From NCBI GenBank assembly GCA_017562135.1, contig QEYB01000921.1, forward strand, positions 496,001 to 560,000: a DNA stretch of 64,000 nucleotides, read 5' to 3'. The position numbers were made by a program, and so were the translations under genes. Below are positions 24,135 to 61,957 of the stretch, piece after piece. Source of the stretch: Dipylidium caninum. Lineage: Eukaryota; Platyhelminthes; Cestoda; Cyclophyllidea; Dipylidiidae. The notes under the pieces were generated by a model. The model was given only the letters and a program-made list of their open reading frames with translations, did not search any database and had not been told where the DNA came from. The stretch's first letter is position 1; each line of letters opens with the position of its first letter.

Positions 24135-24213
24135 ATGACATTTTTGAGTCTTTACATTCTACTCCTCCTTCTGCGCACAGGATACACATTTTCGGTAGAA
24201 CTATTGCAGACTG
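24135..24213 (+). CDS. First exon of the large membrane protein: signal peptide
   Basis: ATG at 24135 starts MTFLSLYILLLLLRTGYTFS, a classic signal peptide with a poly-Leu core. The exon ends at a consensus donor, ctg|gtgagt, in phase 1. An acceptor-like ggacag lies about 20 nt before the ATG, so a short leader exon or a trans-spliced leader could be joined there. Confidence 0.65.
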
Positions 24214-27200
24214 GTGAGTTTTTATGCCGCCATTTTTCACTTATTTAAAGTCGCTGCTTTGCGCCTTATGACAAAACTGGTCAAGGCACTTTAGTTCATC
24301 ACTTTTCTTCACACTCTCCCCTTTTCTCTCTCCCCATCTCCCATATCCCAAGCGTTGACAAGTGACAAAGAGAATTCGAGTCCATTGGCACCTGACACCG
24401 AATGTTTAGGGATGATAAATGGAAGTTCTATAGCTAATGGATGTCAGTGAACACGACTTCTATAATTTTGTTTGATCCCTGTCACAGTAGCCTCATTTCC
24501 TCGCATGAGTGAAGGATAGAGGCTGAGTAACCATTCATCAATGAAAATGGTCAGTCTTGGGAAATTACGGGAACAGACGGGTGTGAAGCCCTCACGCGTA
24601 AATTTCTCCCGGCTAAGCTAAAATAAAATGACCGCACATAAAAGGCCGCAACGAATTTTAATTATTCTGGGGGGAATTGTTCTATCTGAGGGTGATTCAG
24701 CAGGTCAGTCATCAAAAAGACAACGGCCAGTGCCTTATTATTCGCTGCAAGTTGATGGCCTCCTCCCCGTAGTCCACCGACTAAGCCCCGAGCCATGCAT
24801 ACTGGTGGCTTTAGGGCAGGATAACGTCGGCTGTTCACTTTGGCGCGTACGTCGGCCACTGGACTGTGGACGTTGAATGTAGGAAATTCCCTGATTGACT
24901 TCAGAGTGAAGGTGGGAGAAATATCAACTTCCTCGGGCAAACACTGCAATGGCGAGGAAGTTGCAGTCGTTATGGCGAAAGAAAAGAGGGCGGGTGCGGG
25001 GGGAGGGGCATGGCAAAAGATACCCGGCGTTCCACCTTGGAGCATGCCAAACGAAGAAATATGGGATCAGTGAAGCCAATTCCTCTGTTTGCTGAGGACT
25101 TTTAGCATCTCACAACCGCAAAACACATCATTTTGTCTTTTTTTTTAAGCCGCAGTGTTCGCTCGAAAGACCGCTGCAATAAGTTAGGATGGACGAGGGA
25201 CTGTCCTCCTTCTTCCCAACAAGTGGGAACTCCTCTAAAGTACACTTAATATTCAGGAGAAACTAAAGTCCACACACACACACACACACACCCCTGTCAT
25301 TTGGCGGCAAAAGATTACTGCACCCTGTTTTCTTTCTGCACGGCGGTTAAAATTAGAGCAGACTGCGATGCTTTGGGGGAAAAAACCTCGGGGATGCTCG
25401 CAGATCCTCGCACCGGATGTAGGTTATCTTTGCGAGTTTTCGCGAATTTTCAACCGCCACCGATTTTCCACCCTTCCTCCTCGGCAACTGTAGAGGCAGT
25501 GTCCGAGACTGCTGGAGGGGTGAAAGTAAAATTGCTCGGTACTCATGAAGGCGATATTTGAAATCTTCCGTAGACTTTGAGACAATGAGAATACGATCAG
25601 CACTGTCTCAGCATAGTTCTGTAGCACTGGAAATAATTGTCACAAGAGTGCTTATCACGCGTCAATGAATCCACACAAATTCACTTTCTTCATTAAAATC
25701 GTCGGTTTTATTTCGAAAAAAAGCTGTTAGTTGCGTGAAGGTGCCATTAAACTGAGGGCGACCGTAAGAGTGCTGTGCAACGCGCATAGGCGGGCATTGG
25801 AGCTACCTCATTTGAAAAATGGGCGGATGCACGCTGTCCTGCCCGACTGAAATTCGCACAAAGTCGGAGGGGGGAGAGCGGCGAAGCCAAGTTTTGTTAG
25901 GCGACGGGCACGAGCCTGCACAAAGTCGAAAGATGTGTTGTCGACGCAATCGAGGAGACCGCATCGCCAAGTCTTTGGTCCCCGACCAAATCTTGGCGCG
26001 GTGACAGCTTCAGGGGAGGCACTCAGACCTCCTCTGCGAGTGACTTGGCAGATGAGTCGAGGGAGTTGGAACAACTTGTGCTCTGACCTGGGAACGCTTT
26101 TGCCGACGGTTGGTGTCTTCCCCTGAAGGTGGAGAAAATTCGCCGCGTTTACGAAGTACGGTTTAGTCGTCTATTTCTGGGAATCATTTGGGATCATGTG
26201 TGCAGATGCACGCGAAAACGGAATGAAGCACCGACAAAAGGTCCGCTTTCCTCCCCCATCGGGCCGACTTAAATGCCGAACATACCAATTCAAACCTCAG
26301 AGGTACGTGACTCGTGTGATTGAGGCTAAAGCCTAATTTGGGAAAGAAAGTCACACCAGTAAGAGACGTTTTCTACAACAATTTCGCCTTTTTAAAATCC
26401 TTTCTTTGACATCTGTTCAACCCAAACCCATTTGTTATACATTTCGTGGACTAATGGAAATCTTGAAACTGTGGCACAAGTCAAAAGACTAGAAGGGGAA
26501 AAAAAACACGGCTATTTTGGCTGGTAGCTGAGTACGTGGGGCTGTGAGGATGAAATTAACTCCTAAACGACAATACAACATTAAAAGGACGGTTGTCCCC
26601 TTTGACATGGACCACAATCAACCGTGGTGCTCGACGCTCACCTCGGAAGGCATGTCGACGAAGCAAAGAAGTTGTACCTGAATCGCACCGCCAGGATGAG
26701 TTCCACAACAGCTGTGAAACGATCGTCGCGACAACTTCCATCGCATCTTCTTCCATCTTTCCACTCCTCCTACGCTTCCCCGCTCTCTATCTTTTTCGTT
26801 TCCATCTGTTTTTGTTTACTGACTGGAAACGGTGCACTGAGGTGTGCCACCAGATTATGGGCGGAGACACACAGACCCTGAGACTTTAAAGGCCCGTATT
26901 TTTCAGGGGGTACAAAGGCGATGAGACTGGAATCGGAGGATTTGTTGCAGACGCAGACATCGACGATTAATGCTGAGGTCTATCACGGCGAACAAAGGCA
27001 GTATTTCGTGGTAAGTTGTGAGTGCGTTGAGGGTGACTTTGCCCTGGGAGGAAGCCCTTTTTCCCCCTGCCGTGACCTAAAGTGTAGCGGAATGTTTAAA
27101 CACCACTCCACCATGACCGCCAGGTTGCGTAAGTGGGCGGAAGAGCCACTGACTGCCTCCTCTGTTCACTTGAAAAAGATCTCCCGAGTATGATTTAGTT

Positions 27201-30200
27201 TGGTTTCGCGTCTGACTCAGGCTGCTAAGGAATGCGTAGATTACTCGAGTGACGTACGATGTCAAAAGAGGTCTACGAGTGAGTGGGAGCGCGTTTGTGC
27301 GGCACTGATTCCCCAACTATGCGCCTCCAGGAGGGGAGAAGACCCGCATGGAGTAGCGAAGACTAACCGTGTCCCGATGGTGAGAAGAGTTGGCCAAAAA
27401 GTTTTTCCTTACTCTAGCAATTCCCAGAAGAGATGCGGTAACCATGGGGACACTTTATGCCAGAATGCAGTCTCCGCTGCGTTCAGTGGAAGCCTCGCAC
27501 TCCACCAGACATGCGATTTGCTCGAGTGCAGGCTTTCAGCAGCGGCAAGCAGGCGATGGAGTTAAGGCTTTGGGGTGCATTGCAATTTTGTTGCTTTATA
27601 ACAGCTACCATTTAAATTTCTATTGTGCATAATTTTAGCTACGAAAATCGGGTGTTTTCATTCTAGTCAACATCACCGGTGTCGCTCTCACCCGCGTCTA
27701 TGAGGAAGTGGAAGGTGTCGGAGAAAGTGGCCACATTCTCTCCTCCTTCAATAGCCCAGGCTTTTCTCAAAATGCAAAGCGGGACTTTGAGTATATTTTG
27801 AATACGTTTTGCAGGTGAGTAGACAGCTTGAAAATGTGTCTTTTCCGTAGTGGCCTCTACTTAATGTCCCACTCAATGCTAAGAGAAGTGGTTAGGCCAT
27901 TGACTGCACCCCTTCCGCCCTCGTCGGAACACCCTCCAACCCACTGGTCCTTCCCTGTCGGCCGGTAATACTCGAGGTGTTCCGGACTAGTCTATAAACA
28001 CCCCCCCCCCCGCAAATGCACTAACTATGGACGGGTTGGTTGAAGTCGTTCGGTCGAGTGCTGTCCTCCCACCTCACCGAGCGGAGGGTCCAAAATGGTC
28101 TAAGATGTGAGCTGCCCAGCACTGTGAGGCAGCAGGGCAACTCGGATTGTCCCAACAACTTTGTTTTATGCCTCGAACAGGACCTAAATTTTGGAGATCT
28201 AAGAGTCGAATATGTCCTTGTAAACAGTTCAATGATTTCAGTGCCACAAAAAAATTCACAGTTTACGATATTTTTTTTTTGTTGATGGAGGAGTAAACTA
28301 TACGGTGGTACTGAATAAACCATGAACTTTTTCGGTGAGAAGTGGAGTTTTAAGAGGCTTCAAAGCGCTGCCATTTGGGGAAGTTGAGATTATTTGTGGA
28401 GACCGTCGAGGTGAGAGAGGAGAGCAACGCATCCGTACCGCGTGGGCAGTGCCCGAAGTTCTTCCGCAGGCCATCTGAATGAGTTGTCCAAATGCACATC
28501 CTGAAGCGATCGTGGGGATTTTCCAAATTTCCTCTTTGAAACGTGGATATTGTGAGACCAGGTAGACAAAGGAAATACACAATCGTGCTTTTTTGACTGT
28601 CAAACCCACCAATTAACCTGAGAGGAGACTCATACACCCGCCTAACCGCTTTAAATTACAGAACTCCCATCCCGGACAGGTACCTTGTAAGCCTACAGAG
28701 CTTCCGCAATCGTTACACCCTCGTCTACCGAGTACCGTGTCGGGACAAAGGAGCGGGCGGCTGCAAGACCGGAGCCAAACTTACCGCTGTGATGCAACGC
28801 TCCCTCAACAGACAGTGCTCTCGAAATGTGAGTTGCTTCGCCGGCCCCCTTCCGTGCCGCGGGGCGGCTTCGGCGGAGGGGAGCGACGCCCTTCATTTAT
28901 TCCATCTTCACGCCGCGTTCTGCCTCGATTGCTCTAAGTAAAAGCCTTACCTTTGATGGGACGGCTAGCAGTGATGACAAGCAGGGGAGAAAGACAAATT
29001 ATCAGAAAGCTTTCCAGCCGTAAACACTAACACCAGGCCAGGGGGACAGAGTTACAGGTGGGACGGAGAGTGGTGTGCACCCGATTCCATCGCTTACGAT
29101 GCCACAATGAAAAAGTGCGACGTCCTCGCCTGATGAGCATTAGAACGCGAATACGAAATGACTGTGCCGAGACTAACGCGCTCGAAATAGTGGACGAAAT
29201 TTGAGCGTCCACTGACTGTAAGACGGTTCTTCATCGTCACCGACGTCCAGAGTAGATCTACGCGATGGCAAGTGGGACTTCTTGACAGTATTTCACTGCA
29301 TCTCAAGAAGAAGAGCTTTCGGCCCGTCGCCTCTATTTACTTCCCTCTCTTGGTCTTCGTCCTTACAGCCAACGACACGGCGTCCGACAGAGTCGAGTAA
29401 ATGTCCCCTCAGTCTGTAACACTGGGCGGCCCTCGGAGGTAGGGAAACCACTCGCCAGTGGGTTGCCAGAAACACCACGTCCGTGCACAGTTTCTAGTGT
29501 TAATTTGCTCCCTGACGACATGTGTCAAGATTATGCTCAGCTGCGCAAAATCATGCCAATTTCCTTCTGACTCGCAAACGTTGGTCAACACTTTATTGTC
29601 GAGTATCTACTTCACCGTAGCTCGTGTGTAAAGAAGGCAAAAAAAGCCTATGAGGTGTCCTGCCTAAACTCAGGGACAGAAAGACATTAAGAAACCTGTG
29701 ATAGAGGAATTTTTGGATTACTTTAATCTACAAAGTTTTTCCTGCTGGAAAAGAAGTCAGGAGCCAAAGCATTTGAAGGGTACTGGCTCCTCGCACTGTC
29801 TCCATCCTCCAATTCGCAGTCATCACTGGATAATAGCCGGAAACCACTGATTATTTCTGATGCAGAGGTCGCATAGGCTACCGCGGCGTTAATAACCGGA
29901 GACAGAGCCAAATCGCCTCTACTGCGGAATGTGGAGGTGAGGCATTTTAAGACGGCAGAACCTGTAGCCAAGCGCCCTCTCCAACGCAACAACGAGGTGC
30001 TCTTGATATTTTACGTTGAAGTCCTACCTGCCTCCTCCTCACGCACTCCTTCTCCAGCATTGTGTGACTCCTTTAACCCTAAAGCACGTGAGAAGAGGCC
30101 ATCAATTGGCTCATTTTAGCCATCATATGGCGGTAGCTTGCGGTCACATCGCTGTTGTAGAGACGCGTTGTCTGCTACTCAAAGTCCTCGCCTAATCTGC

Positions 30201-33200
30201 GTCAGCATTTGGTGACACAGTCAACAGTCTTGTCTGCGGCTCCTGCCAAAGAGGATCGCGGCAGGTCCAGTTTCGTTTCACTTGTTTGCTCGACGTAGTT
30301 GCCGGCGTCTGTGTTTGTCTCCAGACACACGACTCACCACAACAATGGGACGTTTCGTCTGTGGTCGTTCATGCGACACGCACTGGTCGGTGAGTGTGTG
30401 GACACGCGGAGGTGGCGGAGATCCACACTGACGGACTGCGGGTTGCGAGTAGCCGCGGGGGAGTGGCCACTTGACAGCCCGTGAAACACCCATCACTCCT
30501 CGCTGTGACAAGCCAAATTACTTAAAATCTTGCGTTTTTTGCAAGTTGCACCCTTGAAGATGCATCGATGCTGAGAGGTAGTTTTAATTTTGCGAAATGA
30601 CATTAGAGTTTCGCGATTGCTCCACGTTTTTGCTGCAGCAGTGGACAAAGCATGTCCTCCTCCGCTCAACACGATCAGATGTGAAGGCGGATCGGGAAGG
30701 TCGCAAGCACAGCCGGTTGTCAAGTGGAGGTAGAAACCGAGAGTTTTTCTCGCAACCAGCATGGTTCTGGTGCGTTATTTCCTGGCCATAATGTAAGAAT
30801 TTTTAATGATGGTGTTTCAGTTGGCAGCCCCGTTGACAGACAGTGAGGAGGCAACTGACAGTTTCTACTGCACCCAAGGATAGTCCCTTACTGAACGACG
30901 TGTTTGGCGTGTACGTGGAGGAGAGCATTTACGTCAAAAAACCACACGACTGTTCAAAATTTCAACGCGCCTGTTTGCAATGCTTCGAGCAAGTGAACCA
31001 GACAGTGAATAGAAACAAAATCTGTGAGTTTAGCCCTCCTCTAGGGCATGCATTCGTCTGAGAGGCGACCCCCTCGGCCAGCAGAGGCTGATTAGTGCAG
31101 TTGTCGTGTTCTCTTGGCGGGGCAGGGCAGGGCGCGGGCGGAGGCCGTGGGGACGGTGGGGCAAATGGCACGACCACGTCAGCTACCGAAATGGTCTAAT
31201 CTCCAAGATATCGGCGACTTCATTCAAAAAATGGAGGATGCTGCGCAATCCTCCCTCATTTTTTTTCCTCCCTTCACTCAGCACTGCCTCCTAGTTTTCT
31301 GCTGTTGTTGTCAAACCTATCAGCTGGTCCAAATAACTTCGTAAATAGAAAATTTACCATAAATAACATGAGTTGGGGAGTATGAGACTCGAGGCTTCAA
31401 AACCAACAAGACTCTTTATTTACTGGCAGTGCCAATAGCCCGGCTAGTTATCGTACCGCGCCACCGGCGGTCGTGTCCGAGGAAACACGGTTGCAGTGGG
31501 TGTGGACCCCTTCCACAGTTGCTCTGACACACAATTCCCACTATCCACTAAACAGGTCCCAGGCGTACCTACAAAGAGGTGGGGCGTGCGAGTTCGTTCC
31601 ATCACTTTTCCCACCTTGCCCTGGGCACTGTCGCACTCGCCATGAAAACACTGGCATGTGACGGCGAGAATGACACTTATTCACGATGACCGATGGGTGA
31701 GGAGGTTCATTTTGCCGCGCTAAATGACAAAAAGGAACCCTCTACAGTGCAATCAGGTGGCAGAAGAGAAAACATGGAACCGTTGCGCTCTAAAAATCCC
31801 CGTGTTTGGGCTAGTTTTCCTCACTGTCAAGACCTCTCAACCACCCCAGAGCGGTGGCGGGAGGAGGAAGGGCACAAGAGGAGGCGGGTGTGTGAAATGA
31901 AGACACCCTCATAATGCAGCACCAGTTGTGTGTCAACAAGTTGGGTTAAATTTGGACGACGATGCGCGCCAACCGCGGATCGCATTACGGTGGAGGAAAA
32001 TAGTGGCTGCAGGCGGGAGAATATGCTCAGTGCGCAGAACATAACTCCTTATTTCAGCGCAATTAATTCCTCGACCATATGGGGACTTTAGTGCTGTACC
32101 AGGAGTGTACGAGGCCATTGAAATACCCATATAAGTACTTAGAGCCGTTTTATGTGATGGTGCATCGAGTTTTGCCGGTTCGCCCCACATCGTCGAGGTA
32201 GCCTCGTAGTTTGAGGAGGGGGGCAGCGGGGGTAAGGAAAAGTTTAATTTTCTGCTTTATGACTAGGCGGTTTGGCGAGGGGAAACATATACTCCGCCCG
32301 ACAACAGCAGCGCTTAAGGAACTCCAACCGCGCCGGTGTTATCGCATACAAAATCGTTTCTACATTCTTGAGGTAGAGTATGTTTCGGCTGGACGCCAAA
32401 AGGCCTCTATGCATCATCAAGTCATCCTAGCATCCTGGGGACAGGAGAGATCAGACGTAAGGACACGTGGAGTTTATGGACTACACGGAGAAGTGCTGAG
32501 AGCCGAAGGGATAAGGAGTCCTTGCTGGAGACGTCACTGCGCGCCATTTTTGGGAGGGTGTAGCTATTTTTCCAGTCGAGCGACGTCCTCGGCTTTCCAC
32601 ACACACACTGAAGTCTCCGCGTGAATAGAGACAAGAAAATGGAGACCGAGGGATTTTGAGATTTGGTCGACGCACTTTTAGGGAAGTTAAGTGAGAAAAT
32701 TTATTGTCAACAACCACCTCCCACGCGTCTTAATTCCCTCGGTTTCCAGTTAGTCCGCCACAATGTGGCCGAGGCGCAGTAACCACCACAGCGCAGGAAA
32801 CAATGTGGACAGTTAAGAGTCTGTTGGTGTTATACTCACCTAACGACTTCACATATCCTCCAACTCAATGCAGTGGTGAAGGAGGTGATTTTAGCGTCAA
32901 TGAAGGGTCGATTTGGCGTTGCATTCACGTTCACCACTGAGAAGTGCCAAACCAGCGTGGATTAAGGGAAGAAAGGGCTATTTTTAGCCCAGGCGGGGAC
33001 TTACAGACCCACCTACGCATACGTATTCTTGACAGGAGATAGTGGCGTCCAGAGATGGCGTTGAAGTGTGCTGTCCCGGCAGAGGCAATGAGATAACAAG
33101 TCGACCTACCTTGAATGGGGGAAATTAAGTGGCTGTTAAGACCGCAGTCGGGCTGAAATGTCAACATGAGCGCGAGGTCACAGACTCACTTGGGTTCAAC

Positions 33201-36200
33201 TCTGGCACCCAGTGTCCATTCCGCACTGCCCACAGTTAATGGCTAGAAAACGATTTACCCACCTCTCCATGATATACCAAAATTTTGTCTTATTCAGTAC
33301 ACTGTGGAAGAAGCGGAAACAGTTGTAGGCAAAGCATCTCATGCTACAACACGCCCGGATGTCTGGGATTCTTCAGTCCACCATGCTATCCGGAGGACCG
33401 GCAGGAGCACATGGACAATGGAACCTGCGTCAAAGGTACCTTGCCTACTTGCACCTGCATGTCCTATAAATTCATTTTCAGTGCACCTCGTTGATACTCT
33501 TAAGGCTCGGCAGTGAGTGCCACCAAACGAGGCATTCAGCTCAGGTGGCTACTTTGACGCCTTTTAATCGCCCTCATATGCTTAACAAGAGCCTTGTGAG
33601 GACGGAACAAGGCAAACACTTTAAATGTCACAGAAGCACTTCGTAAGGAGCCTGATTGACTTGGAGGCACAGATGTTGGGCGGAGACTATTACACTTCAG
33701 TGGGAAATTGTCGTAAGACTTTTCCTCTCAACGGCCCCTATCCACTGCGTTCAGAGGTTGTTTTCTGGGTGCCCAACCTAACTTACACTAGCTATGGGAA
33801 AAGTTTTCTATTCAAATTTTAAACATAAGCTCGTGCTCACTAAACTTCGGTTTTGACTTGTGTCAAATCCAATTATAAATTTCGTTTATAAAGGTTTAGT
33901 TTGCATACCCAGTAGGTAAACAGTAAGCCTTGTAATTTCCCATGTCCGCCAAGACTTATTTTATTTTGTCTCCAGCTGGGCGTTCCTAAACTTTCCTCCT
34001 CCTGTAATTTACTAATTAGTCACTTCAGGAGGCATTTTCGTTAGCAAAGAGACAACTTCTCAGGTTCTCCGTCCGAATATATTGTCTACTGTAGTTGATA
34101 TTTGGGTAGGAAGGGCAGAACCCCTTATCTCCTATTTCATTTCCTGGCAAAGCCCCGGGGACAACCGGTTATGTGATTATATTATAGTCATCGGGCCAAT
34201 AAACTTTCTAAAGTATTGTGGTAGGAACGTGGAGCATATGATCACCCGGAACTACTTCCATTATAAAAGCTCATAGAACCTCGATTCTAGTAAACATTAC
34301 CTTTACCAAGCCAAAATCAACAGTTTTGAGGACAGATAAGATAGTAAAACCAAAAAACAGCTTAGCATCCGGTTTGCCTCTTGCATAATGGCAGAAATTA
34401 GACCGATACTAAAATTTCTACTCAATTAATATAAGCAATATAAGTTTACCATCGCAATTTAGGCCTCAGGTTAGTTTAATTGAAGGTTGGCCACGAAGAG
34501 GGGTGTGGAGACATTACGGGAGTTGCGAAGAATTTGTCACTTCAACGCATTGAGTCATTCTTGTCGGAGTGGACATTCCACAAGGGACGCGCGCACCTTT
34601 TCACCTCACTTTCTGACATGCAAACCTACCAAAATGATCGATTGCCCAGATTTTATCCACGATATACAGGAGTATTTTTTCCGCTGACTTAGTGGTAAGA
34701 ATGGACGCGTGACTTTTCACTTCAGCCTCCCATTAATGCCTAAATCAGTAGATCTCTGTCGAGTCGGTGTTGATGGAAAAGAGCCTTCGTGCCTGAATGA
34801 GATGTGGAGTTAAACCCTCGGCGAAAGCAACACTTTCGCCCAATCGCTTAATGCAACTGCGGGACTGCATCACACAGTCAACATTTTTCACTTTGACTTA
34901 TGTTCCGTAGGAAAGTTTGTTTGAAACTCATATGAAAAGAAGCCTCATTTTTATATAACATTTAGGCAATACGTTCAAGATCCGACTTTCACCCGTCTAT
35001 CGAAATATATCAAATGCTTTTCAATGCCACCTGCAACGCCGTCCACGACATCAACTTCACTTCAATTTTACAATTCTGGCAGGGTTGAAAAGGCAGAACG
35101 CGCTAACGCATCTGTGACGGACCCGTCGACGACGTTGTGGAGTGCAGATCCACAGCAATTCCACATTGTATTAAACACCACCATTGTGTCTACCGTTGCT
35201 GGGCCTCTGGACATAAAAGCTCGATTGTCACCTCAGAATTTATCAGTGACCTCTCCGCAAGACGTCATTCTAAGAGGAATCAGGTCATCCACTCATGGTA
35301 ATGAAAGTGGTAAATGTCATATCCCTGATTTACTTGGTTACACCAAAAGCTCGCATGTTTCCGTCGCCACGCTCGCAGACGCGAATGTGTCAATTGCGAG
35401 ATCCGAGGAGTCTCATCACTCCGAGTGTACACATGGCATAACACCAGCAAGACTGGCCTCTTTACTCATTCAGCATGAAGTCACGTCGATAAATTCGTCG
35501 GAGAGTTGAGTTATTTTGAGATACACCCCTACGAGCTGCCATATGCCACAGGAGAGAATTAGGTAATAAGATATGGCCCGTTTGGAATGGCGAGGAGAAG
35601 ATGCAGTAACCGTTCCAGGCTCATTATTTTTCTTCTCTGTTAGGGATAAGGAATTAGTTGCAGGGGAATTGGTCTTTGAGGTCGTGAAACAGGGGTAAGC
35701 CGGTCATTTGGTCTATAAAAATCACGGTTCCGCCCATCTTGCCCAGCACTCCACGGCGGACTATGGAGGGACGGGCTGGGATGTGTGATGCTGCCCACTT
35801 GGCTCGAGGCTTGCACTCCCACATGGGATACCAAAATACTGTGAGGTTTAGCTACTCTAAAACCCCAGGATTGTCATTCCTCTACTAATGGGAACGTGGA
35901 AAAGAATCGTGGAATTGCTGTCAGCTCCACCACAAAGGCGCGCCGATCAAATGGTTGTATTGAAGGCGCTGGATCTCAGATTTTTCGAGAGCGATTTCCT
36001 CCAGATTACACGAAAGCCCCTTGGCCAGCATCACGGTAGGAGAGTAAAAAGGGTGTTTGCGCGAAGGGAGGATTAAAGAACATACATAAGATGAAAAATT
36101 TTTAACTCCAGACGAAATACTTCTGCCCCATCCATCTTGAAACGAAATTGGGACCGGGGGTTAAGGGGACTCTGTGCTTTCGTGAGGAGTGGGTAAACAA

Positions 36201-39200
36201 GACGGTAAAAGGATTTATTTATCTTCCCCACAGAATATGAACTAAATCTACACTATCTGAAGTTGTTTGACCGAAAGACCGACGTACTGCAGAGCGATGA
36301 TTTCGATGGTGCACGAAGTCAAGGCGATCTTCGAATGAAATTTGTTCAATTCACAAAACCTTTCCTTTACACCACGTCGAGCTGGCGATCAGCCAGTTGT
36401 GATCTGGACATAAGCCATTTCGTGAACGGTGATGAAGTACTGTACGGCCCGGCTATATCACCTGCGTTTGTACAAAATTTGGACGGAAGAAGACCGCACA
36501 TATTTTCTTACGCTATGAAAAACGACCTGGATAATGGGCTCAAGGTGAAATTCCACCTGAAAAGTACGTGGTGGACATTCACTCATTAATATGCCTCTTT
36601 TGTCACGATCATGGGTTTACGAGGCTAAAGTCGTAGGTATCCGTATGGGGACAGGGCTACTTTCCTATTGACTCGTGTTGCTTTCTCTCATCCAACTAAC
36701 TGGAGACCTGATTTTGTGAAACACTCTCCCTAGAAGTGGTAGAGGATTAAATTTGCCATTAACTAACGTGAAAGGAATAACCTCCTCTCTCTTCGTCACT
36801 TACTTCGGTGGCTCGTTTAAAGTCTTGGAGTTCGACGCTGCACTGAATTGTGGAAAGAAATGGAGAAAAAAAATTTTCATGTTTAAAGATGGCATCAGGG
36901 AGAACAGTCGACATCGATCGCTCGCTGATTGGTCCGCTGGCTCGGCCAATGGAAATTAGTATGGAATCTCCGTTCATACAGTCGGTTCATGCTAGCAAGG
37001 CAGATATCAAAGTGTAAGCAGCGTTTCCCCTCCACCCTTTTTGTTTTCTTCTTAATCCAGAAGAGACGTCGATTCTAAAATTTTGCCATTTGCAATAAGA
37101 CCAGACGATTATCCGCGGCCGGCAAGAATGTCGCCAATTCAGTAAGAACGGCCAAACCCTCCCTCTTCTACTCCAAACAGCGTTGGACTTTAAATGTCAA
37201 CGGTAATCAACACTTATTTTCTTTCCTCTCATCTTCTCTTCTATGGACTTGTCCCAGTAGTTTATACTGTTAACCGTTGTTGTTTATACCCTGAGTTCAC
37301 TCCGGAAAGCTAAATGAGCGCTTTTCACGTTAATGGTAGATAAACTGAACGGAATACTTTGTTTCTTGTTCTTCTCCAAGTCGCCTTTTTATCATGGCGT
37401 GAATTCTTGCCTTACCTTAAGGCTAATATTCCACTTTCCTTGTTAAGTGGGTGAGAAGGGATTAGCAAGATGGAGCATAGACGATTGCGCAAAACGCTTT
37501 ATGGTTTTTTAATTTTTCCCTTATCCCGTATCCTATTTTATCCCTAGGTAGAACGGAAGTGACTCCGATTTATCTTAACGTATACGTTGCATTTGACGAA
37601 GCCCCCCCCCCAGGCCGTTTTTGCATCAAGATTTGATCATTTTCCCCACTCATGACAACTACGCACGCGATGTGCACTCCCGCTCCACCTATGATTTTTC
37701 CCTCCAACTACGCTTTCCACGTTTGTCTGAACTCGCTGGGGACAGAGGACCGAGACACGAGCAACAGGGTTTGCGTAAACTACTAATATCCATTCAAGAC
37801 TGCTTTCACACGCAAAAGTATCAAATGCTCCTGTTCATCACAGGCGATTCGACCGATCCGATGATGTGGGATGAAACATCGCGTGAATCCATCGACGCAG
37901 AGGATAGCGGCGTGGAGAATTCCACTCGCACTCCTCCCACCTACGCCATACTCTCTCGTGTGCTGTCAACCAAAGATGTCAATGTCATTCCCTACCTGGT
38001 GCTCTTCTTCGCCGCGTCAGCTGCTATCATCATTCTGATGATCATCAACACGTTGATTTGCTTGATTAAACGACAGAGGCGAGGCAGATGCCGTGGGATA
38101 CAATTAAGACATTTGCATCTCAAGGACTCGAACAATAAGGAATTTGTGGTTATTTCCGGTGAAAAGGCGAAACAGCATGAGGAAGGCTACATTCCCCTGA
38201 ATTTTAGAACTCCTCACACCCTGCTAACACCGTCTGAGGGTCCAAGTCAAAATTTTACCTGTGCAAAAAAGGGAATCCTCGTTTCCTACATCAGCTTCCG
38301 CGTTTTTTATACTTTCATTTTTACTTTCTCGGTGGCTCTGTCGATCCTCTTTAGCTTTTGGCCCCCTGTGGGTCTGGAAAACGTAGAATCCACATCCGTC
38401 TGGAATAAGGAAGTCCTCCTCCCTCTGAGCCAGCGGGAAGCTGCTCGTCGCGAGGCCGACACTGACAAGGTGCTCAATCAGCACTCCACGAAGGCGGCCC
38501 AGCTTGTCCACGTGTGTCAGGACATAATGATTCGGCAAATCGTCGATTTCACCCGAGAAGTTGACCGAACAGTCCATGAGGTGTTAACAGCCGAGTTGAA
38601 TCCGGGAAAGTCGAAAGAAAATATGTTCAAGATGATGGAGGCATTTATTTTTCGACAGATGAATGACCTCAACCTGGCTGTGCAAGACTACATCAGTCAT
38701 TTGAGGGCAGAACTCGATGGCAGCATGATGCCCGACGTGGTGCGCTTCTCCGAGCTGCTCTCCAGCATCTACGCGTCGCAGTGGCTGCTCTTTGTGAAGA
38801 GAATGATGAACAGCACGCACACATCCTGGGACATAAATGGCCCCGAGGGGCACTTTGTTCCCACTCCCGAACACTTGAACGCCCTCCGCCTGAAGATATC
38901 AAACATTGAATTTGCACGACAGTTTGGCCTGGCCGAAGCGGAGAACTTCCTCTTCATTCCTTCGCTCATTACGTCACAGTAAGTTTGATATGGTGGTAGT
39001 ATTGTACACTCTCAACATGGACCACATATCGTCCGGAGAGGCGTCACGCAGTGGGTGTTGGCCGGACGAGGAGGGTCCAGTGCCCCTCAGGCGCCACGAG
39101 CGCAGACTTGTGGATTAGCCGGGCTGTTTACTCGACGAGGTGACTGGCGATGACGGAGGGAATGAGGAATCAGAGTGATTTCATGAGGCCCCCCACGTTA

Positions 39201-48200: not shown

Positions 48201-50985
48201 GACTGCGGTGAAGTTTCCACGGCTAAGTGGATGGTGGGCGGAGGGCCAGAGTCTGGTCTCCAGCCCATCTCCGCCCCCGGTAGGTGATTAATGACCTACT
48301 CCACCTTTCTCCCGTGTTCGCGGTGAAAGGAAGTGGTCAGGACTCTGTTGCGCAATTCGTAACCGATATTCTGTGGATAAGTCATCAATCACGCTAAAAA
48401 CTTGTTGTTGCACAGCAACAAGGACATCCGTTATGTGTCTATTATGTTATAGTAATCTCAGAAAGCCCCCTTCTTCCTGCCATCCCACCGCAGTCAGTTC
48501 CCACGGAGGTTCGGTCCTCCCGAACTCGTCTACTTCTGCGCCGAGGCGCCAAAATGGTTAAATTTTAGCTTATTTGAACTGCGGGCTCACAACCATGCAT
48601 TTTATTCAGTGGGAAAATTGCCCAGCCCTGCGACTTGATCGGGCGTTTCGAGGGAGAGCCACCGCGATTTGGTCTTTCACGAGCATTGATTGCAGTCGCT
48701 GTCGGCGAAAAAGAAAATTAGGGTAATTCACTTACCCATCGGCTTTTTGGCGGTGGGACAAACCACCTCCTCTTGGTTAAAATGACTCGTAAATTACATT
48801 TGTGCAAGAAGGTCGCAGAAACTGACAGCATCGATATAAGCATCTTCACCTCCTCTACTCCCCGAGAAAAGATAAAATTGAGGAGTTTTGTGTGAAAGGG
48901 AGCTCCCACTTGGTCGTGTTTTGGCGACCCCTGGAAGGTGAACTCCGCCGAGAATGTGGGAGCACGTTGAAGCTCTTTCCTCCCCGGCGGGTATGATTAA
49001 CTGCGCCGGAGGCGCACCGTTGGGGGCTACAGGGAAACCTTCGTGTCTCTTTCCTCAAACAAAATTTACTTGACAGCCCTTTTATGTTCTGTCAAACGAC
49101 TGGCCCCTTAGGTAGGATTTATGTATCCATTAAGAAGAGTGGGAACAAGTTGCTCGGACAGAGGACGAAGGAAGGGATGTTGGCACATGCAGCAGCGCCC
49201 CTACTTCCGAGTTGGTCTCCGCCACATTATGCTTCCCAATTTTGACTGCTGCCAGTTGATCTCTTTTCAATTTGGTTACTGCATGGTGAAAACTTACCCG
49301 AATCCACAGTAAACAAGTCGAGGGAGGTCTCTGCTCCGAAACATCCCCAAATGCCCAATCGGCTACTAAATGGGCACGGAGGAAGGAAAGCAGTTAGACG
49401 GAGTATTCATGAGTGATGGTTAAAATTTCTCCTTCTCGACGTAACCTCGCCGGTGGCGTTGAATCCTCCATGCTGTTAAATAATTAACATCGGTTGGACG
49501 ATCTTCCAAACATCATACTTTTATGAGGAGGGAGAGGTGACTTGTGCAGACAGACAGACTTGGTGGGGAGGAGTTGCCACCATGAGGGGCAAGTCAACTC
49601 CCCTTGTAACTGTCCTACAAGAACACTCGGCTTCGCCCTGCAACTGCGTGAAGGAGGCGCTAAACGTGTCTGGGTGCCCTCCTCAACAATGCTATAATTT
49701 GGCTTTTCCAGGATGGTTCCCTCTGCGAGTATCAGCAATATGAACAAGCATGTCAGGCTACGTTCATCCGACCGGTCAAGTCGGTGCAGGAGATCGGCGG
49801 GTCCAGCATTTCCACATTGCACATGACCATTGCAAGGAACAATCGGTACATTGTCATTCTCTTCGGCTGCGCACTGGTCCTCTTCCTAGTTGTCTTCGCG
49901 GTCTCTGTTAACCACCGGCTACTGCATAAATCGAGGAGCGATCGCCCAGCGGCTGATAATGGAGCTGTCGGGGATAGCGACTTCTACGCTCACTCCGAGG
50001 GGCTCGTAAAGACTCACGTAGAAAATCTAAACAGGGTTCTTTTGTCACTAACCAGGCTGAACGAACATAGACTTCGCACGAGAATGCAACGCTTTGCCGA
50101 CCGATTCAGGCACGACTTGGTGAGTTATTTTCTGACTTGATTGGAGGCGGAGGAGAATAGCATCACACACACACACAAACAAGCAAAGGTGATTTTTTTA
50201 TTCCGATGCGTCTCCCCCTCTGGGAGTGAACTTTGTGTGGCGCTGCCGCTGCTTGAAATATTCACGGTGGGGACCTGAACAGAACCAGCGGTAAACATTT
50301 AGCCTTATCTCATAAGTTGTAGTTTGAGTGCATGAGCTTCCACCGCTCTGAGGGGCTCTGAAGATGGAAGTCGAGGTTAGGCTGGCGGTTCCTTCGATCT
50401 GTTGCGATTCTGCAGGTCAGGAGCCCCGAGCCTTTTGACTTGATAGCGTGCGTGTTCCCGTGTCCCGCATTTACTTGGACATCCTAAGCGACACCTTCTC
50501 CTCACAAGCCCTCCCAAATAAAGGTGATCGGCAGTCCAAGAACGTATTCAGCTAATTCCTTGACTAACGTCGCTCAAAAACGTCACGGGCAGCTTTCACG
50601 TTAGCTGAAACGCTCTCCACTACGAGCTCTTTCTTCTCCAGAGATGGTTGCCTTCTTTTGTCACCCTGTCCCCGTTATCACAACGTGGAGAAGTGCAGAG
50701 GCGAAAGAGGGCAAAAATTTAGGGTTGTAGGACAGTCCGCACTCTCCCCGCGGAAGGAAAACTTACTTCGAGGAGTAAACAAAAATTTCGGAGTTGGCAG
50801 TCAAAAAATGCCCACTTGTTTGACACCCAGGTGTCTGGATTTGACACCACAAGTGATTTGGTAATATCACTTATATTAACACATGTGGATTTCACGGTGT
50901 TGGGATAAGCAAATCCGAATGGGATGGCCAAATTCTCCCAGCCTCCAAGCGATGGGCTGCACGACTTCCTGTAACCTTCCCAACA

Positions 50986-51018
<33 letters not shown>

Positions 51019-54000: not shown

Positions 54001-57000
54001 GGACGAGAACTACAGGAAACGCTAATTCGCGATTTGATTTCCCTAAGAAAATGACATTTTTACGCTAAAGTGTCATGATTTCCGGATGTGGAAATCTCGC
54101 CAAATCGGAAAGGGAAAATTATCATCGAGACGACTTCCATTAGCTTGCATGTTACGGTGCAATCATTCGGGCTGCCTGTTAGTCAGCCGCCGGCACCTCC
54201 ACGACACCGATTCTGCTGCGGCGAGGTTGGCGGAAAGACGGTCGAAGTCTCCTGCCTCGGCCGGCATCAGCCTCCTCCGCTGCAATTCTCATGTTGGCTA
54301 AAAACGTGGCCTTCAGCAGCCCCCTTCGGCGCCGGGCTCAGCTGAGAGGTCGCATTCGTGCCACAACCCATTGAGTCCTTACAAACGGTCAGTTCACCTT
54401 CACTCCCTCCTCCGAGGCCAAACTGTTGGCAGCGACGGTGATGGGAGGTGGCGTTGAATGTTTATGCTGGACAAGAAATTTTCCCCCACGAGGGATTTGA
54501 GCAAACTCAGCTCTGGAAGTTGCTCCCAGTTGGTGCTGAGGCAACCTCCAGTTCCGCCCGAACTCATCGCGCCCTTCAACAGACCCACAGTTGGGGCAGG
54601 ACGCGCTCATGCGAGCAATTTGCTGGCCCTCACGTGCGTGCTCGAGGACAGGCAACTGGCGTATCCCCAATTCATGGCCAATTTATTCATTTGACAGGCA
54701 CTGTCACTTTCTCCTACACTCGACGTAAGTCCTGCAAAAGTTAGCTCGGAACTTTGCAGTTTCTCTTCGTGATAATTTTCCAAATGGTCGGAGAGATAAA
54801 ATCAAAAGATACTGGACCACGTAATTCACTTCACAACTTACCTGAGTCGCGAAAACTCCTCCCTTTGGGGTTGTTAATGCCTCCGTGGAATGGATCGCAA
54901 AGTCTCCCCATTGTGGACTTAATTACATTCACTCCGCCTGCATCTGATAGCGTTGTGTGGCTGTTTTGAAAAGTTGAACTCCCCGTTTCCTGTTTGAGAC
55001 CTTTGAGATAAAGTGAATGACGGCCGGGATGCTGTCCACACACTGTGTTTCATTTGGCGTAAATGCTCCAAAGGGCTTTACGATGGCCTCTCACGCCAGG
55101 ACTGGAATAAGATCTGATAAAGTAACAAAATATGTTAGAAACAGTGGGACAGATGGCAGTTCATTCAGTCTCTCCTGCGCTCTGTCACACAGGCTTTTCG
55201 TCTCCTCAATGTGTTTCTCTAAAAAAAATAAAAAAGAGGTCTTTTACTTGTCCCTCCTGATCCATTCATTTCCCCGGTATCCAACCAGGCGAGCAGGGCG
55301 CAGTTGAGCTTAACCAAGAAGTCTCTTCTCACTCCCTTCACCGGAGCGTGGTCACTTCTTCATAAGTTGTCTTCGACCGTGAAATAAGGACAGACTCCCA
55401 CCCACAACCGCCCGCTTTCCTCCTCTCCGCACCGCATTTCACGGCTAATCACCATTGACGTTGGTCGCATGTCGATTTGCCCCTTGCCGAGGGCTTTGAC
55501 AAGCAGCCAGTGGGTAACTGGGCTTAAAGTGGGAAGAGACCAGTTGAGGGTCCTGCTTGTCAGAGGAAATCTTCACACGCACACACACACAACACACGTC
55601 GTGTCACGTGTGTCAGTCCATGCATTGTATGTGTTTTTATGTGTGTTTGTGTTTTTTGCCGTCCCACTCCTCGCCTGAGAATCGAGAGATCAGACAATTA
55701 TATGCAATTTAACTTCAAGTCTGTTTACTCAGGTTGAAATTAACGCCGAGATAAGGTTTGCGAATATGAGCAATAAATTGTGGCAAACACCGATGTCTGC
55801 CTCAAATTGTAACAAAAGAATAATGGCATGGGACTGATTTTGACATTCTCGTAAGTGCGCAAAAGCCTTTCCCATGAGGCGACTTCTTTTGCTCCACCAA
55901 TTACACCGATTAGGAGAGAAGGGTGCCTGTTTATTTATGAAATTTTAAATTTTAATAGAGTTTTTGTGTGATAACGTCACTAGAGACACGTGGAACACCA
56001 ATTTCTGCGAGAGACCTGTCAAATAGAGCGACTTTTGACGAGTTCGCGGTGGTCGGGCGAAGCCTCGGCACCCACCAAGGCCGCTCAAAGCCCCTCCAGC
56101 TGCTCTCCGCCCTCACCACGGCCGATCGAGGTGGGCAGCCTCTTTCGACAGGAGCTCTGCCAATTTCTTCCACTCAAACCCTCCAGCCATCCACGGTTCC
56201 TCCAACATCCCATCAGTGAGCTCATGCTCAGCTTTACTTTATTCTTTCACAATTTTTTTTCTAGACCCAAAGCGTGGCTTTCAGAAGTAGAGATTAAAAT
56301 CGCCAGGTAGAGTATCACAGGGCAAAAATACTAAAGTCACAAAATTATTATTGCGTTTCTTTCACAACTCAGTCCACCATGAATGGAAAAGTGGTCATGT
56401 TATGTTGACCATGCAGTGTCTGCCTCCTCAAATTCTCTGCCCTAAAACCGCTCTTCCGTAGCCCACTTGGACTTTCGAGGTGGCCGATGCGATTTTGGTG
56501 ATGGAAAGACGAGCATGGGGAGATGCCGAGAGGTGGGGGAACGCGCGACGAGGAGTCAGGGGACGTGTCGAGGAGGTTCCACGTCGTTCCCCCATAGCCT
56601 GAAATCAGCAGGCAGATGGAAAAGGAAATAAATTTGGCTCTGATTAAAGTAGTCTACGGTCAAGGGAAATGCCATGACTGCGTTCAGCTTCACGAGAGCG
56701 CTGTTTTGGGAGATGAGTCTACTAGGATTGCCTGAGGGGGGGGGAGGAGGGGAAGTTGTATTTCAACCCAACACCCATCAGGCAGGTTATGAGTTGAAAA
56801 ATTAAAGAGAAGGTTTTAAAAAGTTGACTTTTTCGACGCCTTCATCTACTTTGCGCGATGGATGTTCACACACAGTTCCTCTCAAATTCAGCTTTTGGGA
56901 TTAGCCCAGCGCCAGCATTTCAGTACCTGCCGAGGAGACAGCCGCCTCCTCATTGCATACACCAAATGTTGCATTATTTGTTCGTAACTTTTTGGATAAA

Positions 57001-60000: not shown

Positions 60001-61957
60001 GCGTCTGCTCATATTGTAGAATAAAAAGTCCCGTCAAGGAGGCTGAGTCGTTAATTTCTAGTGTTCACTGCCGAAAATAGTACAACGCTGGCGACTGAGA
60101 CAATCAGCATCGTCGTCTTTTTATCAATTGAAGATGTAAGGTATTTGCTGAGTTTGAATTCATTTTCTGCAGGACCAGACCAATCTAACTCTTTGAACTT
60201 TAACTGCAAAAAAAGCACGTGTAACAGCCCATTTCAAAACACATCCAAGTTTTTTTTCTGTCTTCGGAGCAGACAACGTCCACCAGTTGCCTGGGTGGAA
60301 AGTTAAAGTAAGTTGAAACGGCACATCTCGTGGCCCAGTAAGAGCGAAATGTGTTTTGCCATATGAACCATCCCATGTTATCCTTATTTGCAGAGATATT
60401 TTTACAGCTATTGTCTTCCAACCCGTACACATACGAAAGACGCTCCTCGTCACATCTCGATTTCCTCCTAATTAGCAGAAATTGTTAGCGGTAGTTAAAA
60501 AACACGGGAAGGGGGAGTTTCCATGGATGGGTCAAAAACCAGGAATGCTGTGAACTTTGGATGCATTATTTTGAATATTTAAATAACTCCTTAAATTAGT
60601 TCCAAGTAAAAAAGTGGTAGGAGCGCACGCAATGCCACACGTGTTAAAGCATTAAAATGGCACTAAAATGAAGCGTCGGGTTACCTTTTCCCGCAACGTG
60701 CAATACTCGAAAATATGGACAAGAATACGCTCAAGCTTACGACGAGATCAGATGAGACAGTAAATACTTGTCGCTAATGTTCAGAGGTATTTGTGTTGCT
60801 TTTAAAAAGTGTAAATTTCTCGCGTAACATACGTTGGCATTATCTTTGAATGAGCATCATTTCTTTCCTAGTCATGACAGCGACTTGAATGCTGTAAAAG
60901 GTGACATTCCAGAGACACATCAAGAGTCAGATGCAATGGAGTTGAAAGGCAGTAGGTGTAAGTGAAAGAGTAAAAGAGAAAAAGAGAGGAGGCTACCCAG
61001 TTAGTGTCAGTGTCGTTTCTTCACCTACAAAACCACCTTTACAGTCTTCACTTCAACTTTTCTTTCTCACTCAGTTTTCCCTAATTTTATTTAATTTATA
61101 CAACTCACAATTGTACAAATTTACAGTAAAATTTAAACTAAAAGGCAGTCGGAACTATTGGTCATCCTTGCTATCCACTAATTTGTAAACTCTTGTTACC
61201 AACTCCGCCTTAGTCCACGCCTCCACTTGTTAGCTGTCCAAAAGTATTTTTACCTGGTTTCGATACAAATCGAATGGCAGTGCCAAGTCCTATTGGACTC
61301 TTCTTCTAAAATTAGCTCTAAAATTAGCCTGTATATGGCTTTAGCTGTTTGTGTCAGGCTAATACCAAGATATGTTTGTTTATCTGTTTAAGAGAATTGG
61401 ACAAACCATTGTTTTTTTCTGAATTCAAAGAGCATCAACGCTGGCAAATAACAAGCGCAAGTCCCATCACCTATCTGTGGAGAGCTTTGGCCAGCTGGAT
61501 CGGCGGCCTGAGCCCTGCAAGCCCACTGGTCGTGAGCCACTTTCTCGTCATCGCTCTCTGCATCGCAGTGGTGATGTTCGGTCTCATAGGTATCTTCCAA
61601 TCCGTCGGCAAATTGTGCCATCGTTTGCAGCAGGGAGAGCCCGCCTTGGATGAACGGAGTGTCCGTCTTCTGTCCTCAGTGCCACCACCGCTTGAGAGAA
61701 AACTTAAACCACCCCCTACTCGAGTTTTCTCCGTCGTCGACGAAGAACTAGCCCCTTCTCTCACTCCCCTGAGTTTACCCATCGACGGCGTAAAAATTGT
61801 GGAAACCGCGACACTCGTGGGTGACAGTGCCATTGGCAATGCGCAGCAATATGTGCTCTTTTCTAATTCTCTTCAACAACCCGAAGCCACATTTTTCCTA
61901 TCAAATGAGCATTCGCATGGTTTTTGTCGTAGTGTGTCGGCACCATCTGAGGTGTAA
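24135..61957 (+). CDS. Large multi-pass membrane protein with signal peptide and Cys-rich ectodomain, about 19 exons, family not recognised
   Basis: Exons in phase: 24135-24213, 26907-27010, 27221-27437, 27667-27814, 28662-28827, 30840-31023, 33298-33435, 34029-34212, 34966-35297, 36234-36544 (or 36563), 36889-37013, 37614-38978, 42093-42308, 42459-43065, 43698-43831, 44369-44414, 49712-50119, 55959-56215, 61393-61957. The sum is 5,586 nt, one frame of 1,861 residues. Layout: signal peptide; ectodomain of several hundred residues with many Cys and N-glycosylation sites; membrane segments near 37987-38067, 38281-38358, 42802-42873, 49847-49909 and 61528-61596; proline-rich tail. A helical loop with further N-sites separates the second and third segments. 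Least certain are the entry of the 36889 exon, the start of the 42093 exon, the weak donor at 34213 and the small 44369 exon. The signal peptide and glycosylation sites suggest a cell-surface receptor or adhesion role, which is inference. I could match it to no family I know. Confidence 0.7.
25271..25291 (+). repeat. (CA)n microsatellite
   Basis: An uninterrupted CA tract of about 21 nt in the first intron of the large membrane-protein gene. Confidence 0.9.
26907..36544 (+). CDS. Ectodomain exons of the large membrane protein
   Basis: Nine exons in matching phase encode the extracellular part. Cysteine-rich pieces include AAKECVDYSSDVRC, RVPCRDKGAGGCK, CSKFQRACLQC and HCGRSGNSCRQSISC. N-glycosylation sites include NITG, NQTV and NGTC. 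The exon at 34029 (DIWVGRAEPLISYFISW) and the exon at 36234 (GDLRMKFVQFTKPFLY) have the alternating pattern of beta-rich domains. I could not match the cysteine spacing to EGF, Sushi, Ig or fibronectin modules. Confidence 0.6.
34966..35297 (+). CDS. Ser/Thr- and N-glycan-rich exon of the ectodomain
   Basis: This 332-nt exon contains a mucin-like stretch, PPATPSTTSTS, and N-glycosylation sites NASV, NTTI and NLSV. It closes at cat|g before gtaatg, in phase 1, and rejoins the exon at 36234 in frame. The open frame continues to 35509 past the donor, so an alternative longer exon that ends the protein as a secreted form is conceivable. Confidence 0.6.
37614..38978 (+). CDS. Largest exon of the membrane protein: first two membrane segments and loop
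   Basis: 455 codons are open without interruption, the longest frame in the window. After DLIIFPTHDNYARDVHSRS the ectodomain ends. The first membrane segment (YLVLFFAASAAIIILMIINT) is followed by a basic stop-transfer stretch (KRQRRGRCRG). A short cytosolic loop leads to the second segment (FRVFYTFIFTFSVALSILFS). The rest is a helical loop with a Cys and an N-site, NSTH. The acceptor lies directly behind a C10 run. The donor is tcaca|gtaagt, phase 2. Confidence 0.85.
42459..43065 (+). CDS. Exon of the membrane protein with third membrane segment
   Basis: The exon enters in phase 2 after gtccag and leaves in phase 0 at a gtaagt donor. It encodes a Ser-rich linker, then LRLTLFVIDCYLIATRFYTT as a membrane segment, followed by a basic stretch (HVNRGAKQNTAKPTR). 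The preceding exon (42093-42308) ends at a perfect gtaagt donor and encodes two cysteines (IKCEPRFTQAYC). Confidence 0.65.
45223..45459 (-). CDS. Possible nested minus-strand exon, faintly methyltransferase-like (tentative)
   Basis: After an acceptor ending ggtcccag the minus strand encodes 78 residues to a stop: FIPPRHPEEVCSITLGVETR and later EEVLLRRIFPNANIRCVGI. The pattern CxxxTLGV followed by LxxxxPN recalls FkbM-type methyltransferases of invertebrates, where TLG(I/V)G begins the SAM-binding strand; the usual GADP is not present. It lies within an intron of the plus-strand gene. No matching exon could be joined with confidence. Confidence 0.28.
   Translation of the reverse strand, partial: FIPPRHPEEVCSITLGVETRVPTEEVLLRRIFPNANIRCVGIRPIRLEFAQHFLEGLQNSTSSLQKAATLHDMTLPER
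47290..47601 (-). CDS. Possible nested minus-strand exon, unidentified (tentative)
   Basis: The minus strand reads MSAIAHELMRFLELLNENGD, then SLPNWFVWTWRTAEDKS and AWTNFWLHM, which look protein-like. The same segment has an open plus-strand frame behind a strong acceptor (gtcctccgcag at 47405), in a phase that does not fit the plus-strand gene. Which strand is coding, if either, cannot be decided from the sequence alone. Confidence 0.25.
   Translation of the reverse strand, partial: THTRKYRPDCTDPSASMSAIAHELMRFLELLNENGDFTRPLVRPADPTRCNLKSSLPNWFVWTWRTAEDKSVSVLKDSPHHHQIAWTNFWLHMVMFRGLGGTQ
49712..50119 (+). CDS. Exon of the membrane protein with fourth membrane segment
   Basis: Acceptor ttttccag and donor gtgagt frame an exon in phase 0. 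It starts with DGSLCEYQQYEQACQ, which is probably extracellular. Then come the membrane segment YIVILFGCALVLFLVVFAV and a charged helical region (HVENLNRVLLSLTRLNEHR). The large intron before it (44415-49711) contains possible minus-strand coding sequence. Confidence 0.75.
50995..51018 (+). repeat. (TG)12 microsatellite
   Basis: An uninterrupted TG tract within the large intron. It could pair in RNA with the CA tract about 760 nt downstream. Confidence 0.9.
51777..51805 (+). repeat. (AC)n microsatellite
   Basis: An AC tract of 29 nt. A second, shorter AC tract follows at 51931-51949. Confidence 0.9.
53395..53437 (+). repeat. Short tandem repeats CCGCCCA and GTCAAC
   Basis: Three copies of a CCGCCCA-type heptamer run directly into two to three copies of a GTCAAC-type hexamer. 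Confidence 0.8.
55959..56215 (+). CDS. Linker exon of the membrane protein
   Basis: A phase-0 entry after aatag and a gtgagc donor in phase 2 fit both neighbours. The encoded segment (SFCVITSLETRGTPISARD onward) is Ser/Thr/Pro-rich and lacks a membrane segment, like a flexible linker. It is GC-rich and also open in another frame, so it is supported mainly by phase. Confidence 0.5.
61305..61328 (+). repeat. Two tandem copies of a 12-bp unit
   Basis: The 12-bp unit tctaaaattagc is repeated twice without mismatch, just upstream of the last exon of the membrane-protein gene. Confidence 0.85.
61393..61957 (+). CDS. Last exon of the membrane protein: fifth membrane segment and cytosolic tail
   Basis: The exon begins after tttaag in phase 2. 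It encodes ELDKPLFFSEFKEHQRWQ, an approach helix, then the membrane segment VVSHFLVIALCIAVVMFGLI, then a tail of about 120 residues with a proline-rich patch (PPPLERKLKPPPTR) ending SAPSEV. A C-terminal S-E-V could bind a PDZ domain; that is inference. An ATTAAA poly(A) variant follows at 61983. Confidence 0.75.

What the first reader, a model, noticed from the sequence alone, without database searches (positions are those of the whole stretch)
24135..61957. A 38-kb gene for an unrecognised multi-pass surface protein of about 1,860 residues
Nineteen exons, many with consensus splice sites, join in one frame from a signal peptide to a proline-rich tail. The combination is unusual: signal peptide, long Cys-rich N-glycosylated ectodomain, then about five membrane segments with a helical extracellular loop. 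The topology recalls prominin but the sequence does not. I know no family that fits, so it may be a lineage-specific or highly diverged receptor or adhesion protein.
Basis: partly seen in the sequence, partly recalled or inferred. Interest (0 to 1): 0.75.

Follow-up and report, generated by a model that had tools for sequence, protein, structure and literature searches.

The report
Tapeworm membrane protein family, function unknown
The stretch holds a real, long tapeworm gene for a probable five-pass cell-surface protein that is found in many tapeworms, has a distant second copy in the same genome, and matches no known protein family that we could test.

Summary
The gene is real. I support 14 + strand exons (24135-61957): 11 (a-k) by tapeworm proteins, three upstream ones by phase and splice sites only; one more conserved exon lies at 37061-37202. 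Length about 1,595 residues, not 1,860; I found no support for more exons. The frame is not unbroken: inside exons c, e, g and the extra exon it changes beside homopolymer runs relative to intact orthologs. Assembly error or decay cannot be told apart.

It belongs to an undescribed family: 17 protein clusters, all tapeworm where an organism is named (11 of 17); no Pfam match over cut-off, best PDB E 0.045, no usable fold. A diverged paralogue lies on contig C452.

Predicted topology: signal peptide, ectodomain of about 600-670 residues, about five membrane segments, two helical loops. It recalls prominin, but prominins lie elsewhere in this genome and profile comparison shows no relation. Likely role (inferred, weak): surface scaffold or adhesion protein of membrane protrusions.

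The parts
24135..24213 (+). exon 1: start codon and hydrophobic signal-peptide-like stretch
   Evidence: open chain with exons 2, 3, a, b; GT donor score 7.1; no ortholog covers it
24353..24442 (+). exon 2, N-terminal ectodomain
   Evidence: phase-consistent; modest splice scores 2.0/2.9; no ortholog covers it
26907..27010 (+). exon 3
   Evidence: phase-consistent; splice scores 6.5/6.7; weak likeness to paralogue, 44 of 1000 shuffles
27639..27814 (+). exon a
   Evidence: tblastn P0001, E 2e-14
28662..28827 (+). exon b
   Evidence: tblastn P0001, E 1e-15; pairwise z 8.1 with a paralogue piece picked by eye
30821..31023 (+). exon c, cysteines; frame changes inside relative to orthologs
   Evidence: tblastn P0001 and P0006, sequence
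33298..33435 (+). exon d, cysteines
   Evidence: tblastn P0001, P0006; paralogue block E 1.3e-6
34966..35297 (+). exon e; frame changes inside relative to orthologs
   Evidence: tblastn P0001, P0006, sequence; 3' boundary inferred
36234..36563 (+). exon f
   Evidence: tblastn P0001, P0006
37061..37202 (+). exon f', alternative or cassette exon conserved with Mesocestoides P0004, whose model starts here; not used by P0001, P0005, P0006, P0007; frame changes inside; 5' boundary inferred
   Evidence: tblastn P0004 E 2e-6, z 21.5
37548..38978 (+). exon g: end of ectodomain, segment 1, cytosolic loop, segment 2, helical loop; frame changes near its 5' end at a run of C
   Evidence: tblastn P0001, P0004, P0006, sequence
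37993..38067 (+). membrane segment 1
   Evidence: hydropathy on orthologs, placed by alignment
38293..38361 (+). membrane segment 2, core motif FRVFYTFIFTFSVALS
   Evidence: near-invariant in the 17-row alignment; hydropathy
42495..43065 (+). exon h, segment 3 at about 42802-42861
   Evidence: tblastn; hydropathy marginal; paralogue block E 6.5e-4
49712..50119 (+). exon i, segment 4 at about 49847-49909
   Evidence: tblastn, hydropathy
55984..56215 (+). exon j, second helical loop; weak acceptor (0.5)
   Evidence: tblastn, junction
61431..61957 (+). exon k: segment 5 (about 61541-61606), proline-containing tail, stop
   Evidence: tblastn, in-frame junction

Best explanation
It is one protein-coding gene of a tapeworm, closest to cyclophyllideans, for a plasma-membrane glycoprotein: signal peptide, an ectodomain of about 600-670 residues with cysteines and glycosylation sequons, then about five membrane segments with two helical outward loops and a cytosolic proline-containing tail. 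It belongs to a family with no described relative, with at least two members in this genome. Shown: gene blocks, orthologs, paralogue. Predicted only: signal peptide, glycosylation, topology. Inferred (about 0.3): it works as a surface scaffold or adhesion protein, the ectodomain binding a partner and the helical loops organising membrane protrusions, much as prominin does, by convergence.
For: 17 ortholog clusters; invariant segment-2 core across cyclophyllidean and diphyllobothriidean worms; one open frame from exon g (37615) to the stop; five hydrophobic segments in P0002; helices at and between them in low-confidence models; paralogue: blocks d, e1, f, segment 2 and segment 3 on one strand in gene order, hhalign 91.8% over 36 columns.
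Against: No transcript was available. Four frame changes in this assembly. Segment 3 is marginal (1.6 in P0002; below 1.5 in P0004) and charge flanks fix the side for segments 1 and 2 only. Models have mean pLDDT 33 and 46, no fold match. Seven of 11 block profiles do not find the paralogue. Nothing tests function or location.
Confidence: 0.6

Rival explanations
1. A highly diverged member of a known metazoan family (prominin or another) whose similarity lies below sequence detection.
For: Prominin-like number of segments and two helical loops.
Against: Prominin matches over cut-off lie elsewhere in the genome (C659, C3); hhalign probability 0.1 with the C3 prominin; no Pfam match over cut-off for pieces, orthologs or paralogue pieces; best PDB E 0.045 for the orthologs and none for the paralogue pieces.
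Confidence: 0.2
2. In this species the gene is a recently broken relic.
For: Frame changes in three exons and the extra exon, whereas a prominin frame of 928 aa and nine kinase frames used for training are open.
Against: All four lie in or beside homopolymer runs (f' by reading the sequence); from 37615 to the stop 1,033 residues are open and conserved. The open controls were picked because they were open, so they are biased.
Confidence: 0.15
3. Two neighbouring genes, an ectodomain gene and a membrane gene.
For: Ten of 17 database clusters hold only the exon-g part.
Against: P0001, P0005, P0006 and P0007 cross the f-g boundary and P0001 has pieces in all blocks a-k; these are gene predictions, not transcripts.
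Confidence: 0.05

Closest known systems
Uncharacterised tapeworm proteins (EGR_04192, A0A068WPW4, A0A5K3EGS8 and others)
   Same: Orthologs: same blocks in the same order
   Different: 33-75% identical over the exon-g part; most database models are incomplete; names such as 'Transmembrane protein 231' or 'Integrin_alpha2 domain-containing' found no Pfam support here
Prominin (PF05478)
   Same: About five membrane segments and two large helical loops (loop structure of prominin recalled)
   Different: No profile similarity; longer ectodomain (prominin length recalled); genome has separate prominin matches
Tweety (PF04906)
   Same: Five segments (recalled)
   Different: No match in Pfam scans of pieces and orthologs; no match in the genome at E 10

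Membership tests
Prominin | Match to PF05478 | tested here: not met
   No hit in Pfam scans; the six genome matches lie on C659, C3 and C44, not in the window; hhalign 0.1
Prominin | Five segments, two large outward helical loops | tested here: inconclusive
   Hydropathy agrees, segment 3 marginal; models weak
Prominin | Location on curved membrane, cholesterol dependence (abstract of PMC10659291 in a search listing) | not testable with these tools
   needs cells
Tweety | Match to PF04906 | tested here: not met
TMEM231 | Match to PF10149 | tested here: not met
   no hit; genome's only match is elsewhere at E 4.2
Meckelin (TMEM67) | Match to PF09773 | tested here: not met
   no hit in Pfam scans of pieces, orthologs, paralogue pieces; the genome-wide search did not complete
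The tapeworm family described here | Collinear conserved blocks a-k | tested here: met

The most novel reading that the evidence does not exclude
A tapeworm-specific, multi-member pentaspan family, unrelated to prominin by descent, that shapes or coats the microtriches of the tegument, a structure found only in tapeworms (recalled).
Probability: 0.1. Interest if true: 0.75.

Novelty: new variant of a known kind. Interest (0 to 1): 0.42.

Why it matters
A conserved multi-pass membrane protein family that the searches find only in tapeworms, with a paralogue, is a candidate for tegument biology and diagnostics, and a test case for convergent prominin-like topology. None of this is tested yet.

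Tried and rejected
Ab initio gene finding with a small codon model gave false exons or merged genes; its high coding score for exon g is circular, because exon g was in the training set, so I do not use it. Splice scores use generic matrices from recall. AlphaFold on 17-18 rows was poor; Foldseek found nothing useful. Weak PDB and Pfam hits (DHDDS E 0.045, MmeI_TRD E 0.006 below its cut-off, DPRP and others) were judged chance. One search's second match, C862 (L049, E 0.007, 49% over 49 residues), scored better than the window itself (E 0.86). My first look read only + frames and missed it; the right frame shows one membrane segment with similar flanks, no segment-2 motif and no family-profile hit. 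I leave it open. L050 was rejected. In one search the blocks a, b, c, e2, i, j, k did not find the paralogue: b's best hit (E 0.037) lay on the other strand, c's was in the right place but near shuffled level. Pairwise (paralogue pieces picked by eye): b 0 of 1000 shuffles; the exon-3/a piece 44 of 1000 with the window chain but 450 of 1000 with P0001; the next piece 27 and 35 of 1000. One search's 97.6% covers 147 columns only and used pieces that I had trimmed with the family in view, so it is partly circular. Papers: PMC6344059 and PMC5818524, prominin passages only; all others search listings only.

Full report
What is there. The window is G000:C211:496001-560000 of a 106-Mb assembly. The ORF at 37597-38982 has no Pfam match at E 1 and no PDB match at E 10. 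A search with joined exon translations found seven proteins, all from named tapeworms; two profile searches found the same 17 clusters among about 8,000 scored candidates each. Eleven of 17 carry an organism, ten species in all, and these are tapeworms (three lineages looked up; the rest recalled). The candidates must share five-residue words and the lists were cut at about 8,000, so absence from flukes, planarians or other animals is not shown. Over the exon-g part the window is 73-75% identical to the taeniid rows P0002, P0003 and P0011 (62% to P0001, whose model lacks part of it), 54-63% to the other named cyclophyllideans and 33-35% to diphyllobothriideans (named rows).

Gene model. tblastn of the orthologs gives ordered blocks on the + strand from 27639 to 61954. 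Listed introns begin GT and end AG; boundaries were chosen by ortholog alignment, phase and splice score together. Median donor and acceptor scores of all GT and AG sites in 24000-62000 are -0.6 and -0.1; the exons' sites score 0.5 to 8.5, lowest at the acceptor of exon j. Total 4,787 nt, about 1,595 residues. A further exon f' is conserved with Mesocestoides P0004, whose model starts there; P0001, P0005, P0006 and P0007 go from f to g without it.

Frame. Neighbouring ortholog-matching pieces lie in different frames within a few bases in exons c, e and g, and in f', in or beside homopolymer runs. Intact copies exist in other tapeworms. I cannot decide between assembly error and decay.

Family. 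In this genome the exon-g ORF's only other hit was weak (E 1.36), but that ORF carries the segment-2 motif (hhalign 91.8% over 36 columns); the reverse search finds the window at E 0.86, behind an unresolved hit on C862 at E 0.007 and a rejected one on C908 at E 0.58. In 80 kb of C452 the family profile's best three of 2,728 ORFs (E 0.002, 0.006, 0.09) lie on one strand in gene order. Block profiles d, e1, f and h find 97.2, 95.2, 94.6 and 84.3 kb on that strand at E 1e-6 to 2e-3, against 0.5-6.1 for one set of shuffled ORFs; the other seven of 11 blocks do not stand out at the right place. Block b gives z about 8 pairwise, 0 of 1000 shuffles. The stretch also holds, by eye, a signal-peptide-like ORF and later hydrophobic ORFs.

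Topology and function. P0002 has five hydrophobic segments. AlphaFold gives helices at and between them, at low confidence. Ectodomain pieces total about 607 residues with 15 Cys and 9 sequons; exon 1 is counted, exons 2, 3 and f' are not. Prominin membership fails. Flatworm prominins are in print: PMC6344059 and PMC5818524, passages seen. Searches for EGR_04192, A0A068WPW4, 'tapeworm-specific' with two further terms, and 'pentaspan' with Echinococcus found no paper on this family. Scaffold or adhesion at membrane protrusions is inference from topology alone.

Noticed in passing
window 6856-7656 +: Ferrochelatase (PF00762, E 3e-49), a haem-synthesis enzyme in a tapeworm.
   Followed up: no
window 4036-4551 +: Phosphatidylserine decarboxylase (PF02666, E 2e-23).
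   Followed up: no
L034 1261-3474 - (G000:C3): A prominin match over cut-off in a 928-codon open frame, plus prominin matches spread over C659:58-66 kb.
   Followed up: partly
G000:C452 about 80.2-104.8 kb, minus (L002, L040-L045): Diverged paralogue of the window gene.
   Followed up: yes
L049 1240-1737 - (G000:C862): 165-codon ORF with one membrane segment and flanks like segment 1 of the paralogue (49% over 49 residues); no family-profile hit. A possible third relative or chance.
   Followed up: partly
window 30821-37620: Four frame changes in or beside homopolymer runs relative to orthologs.
   Followed up: partly
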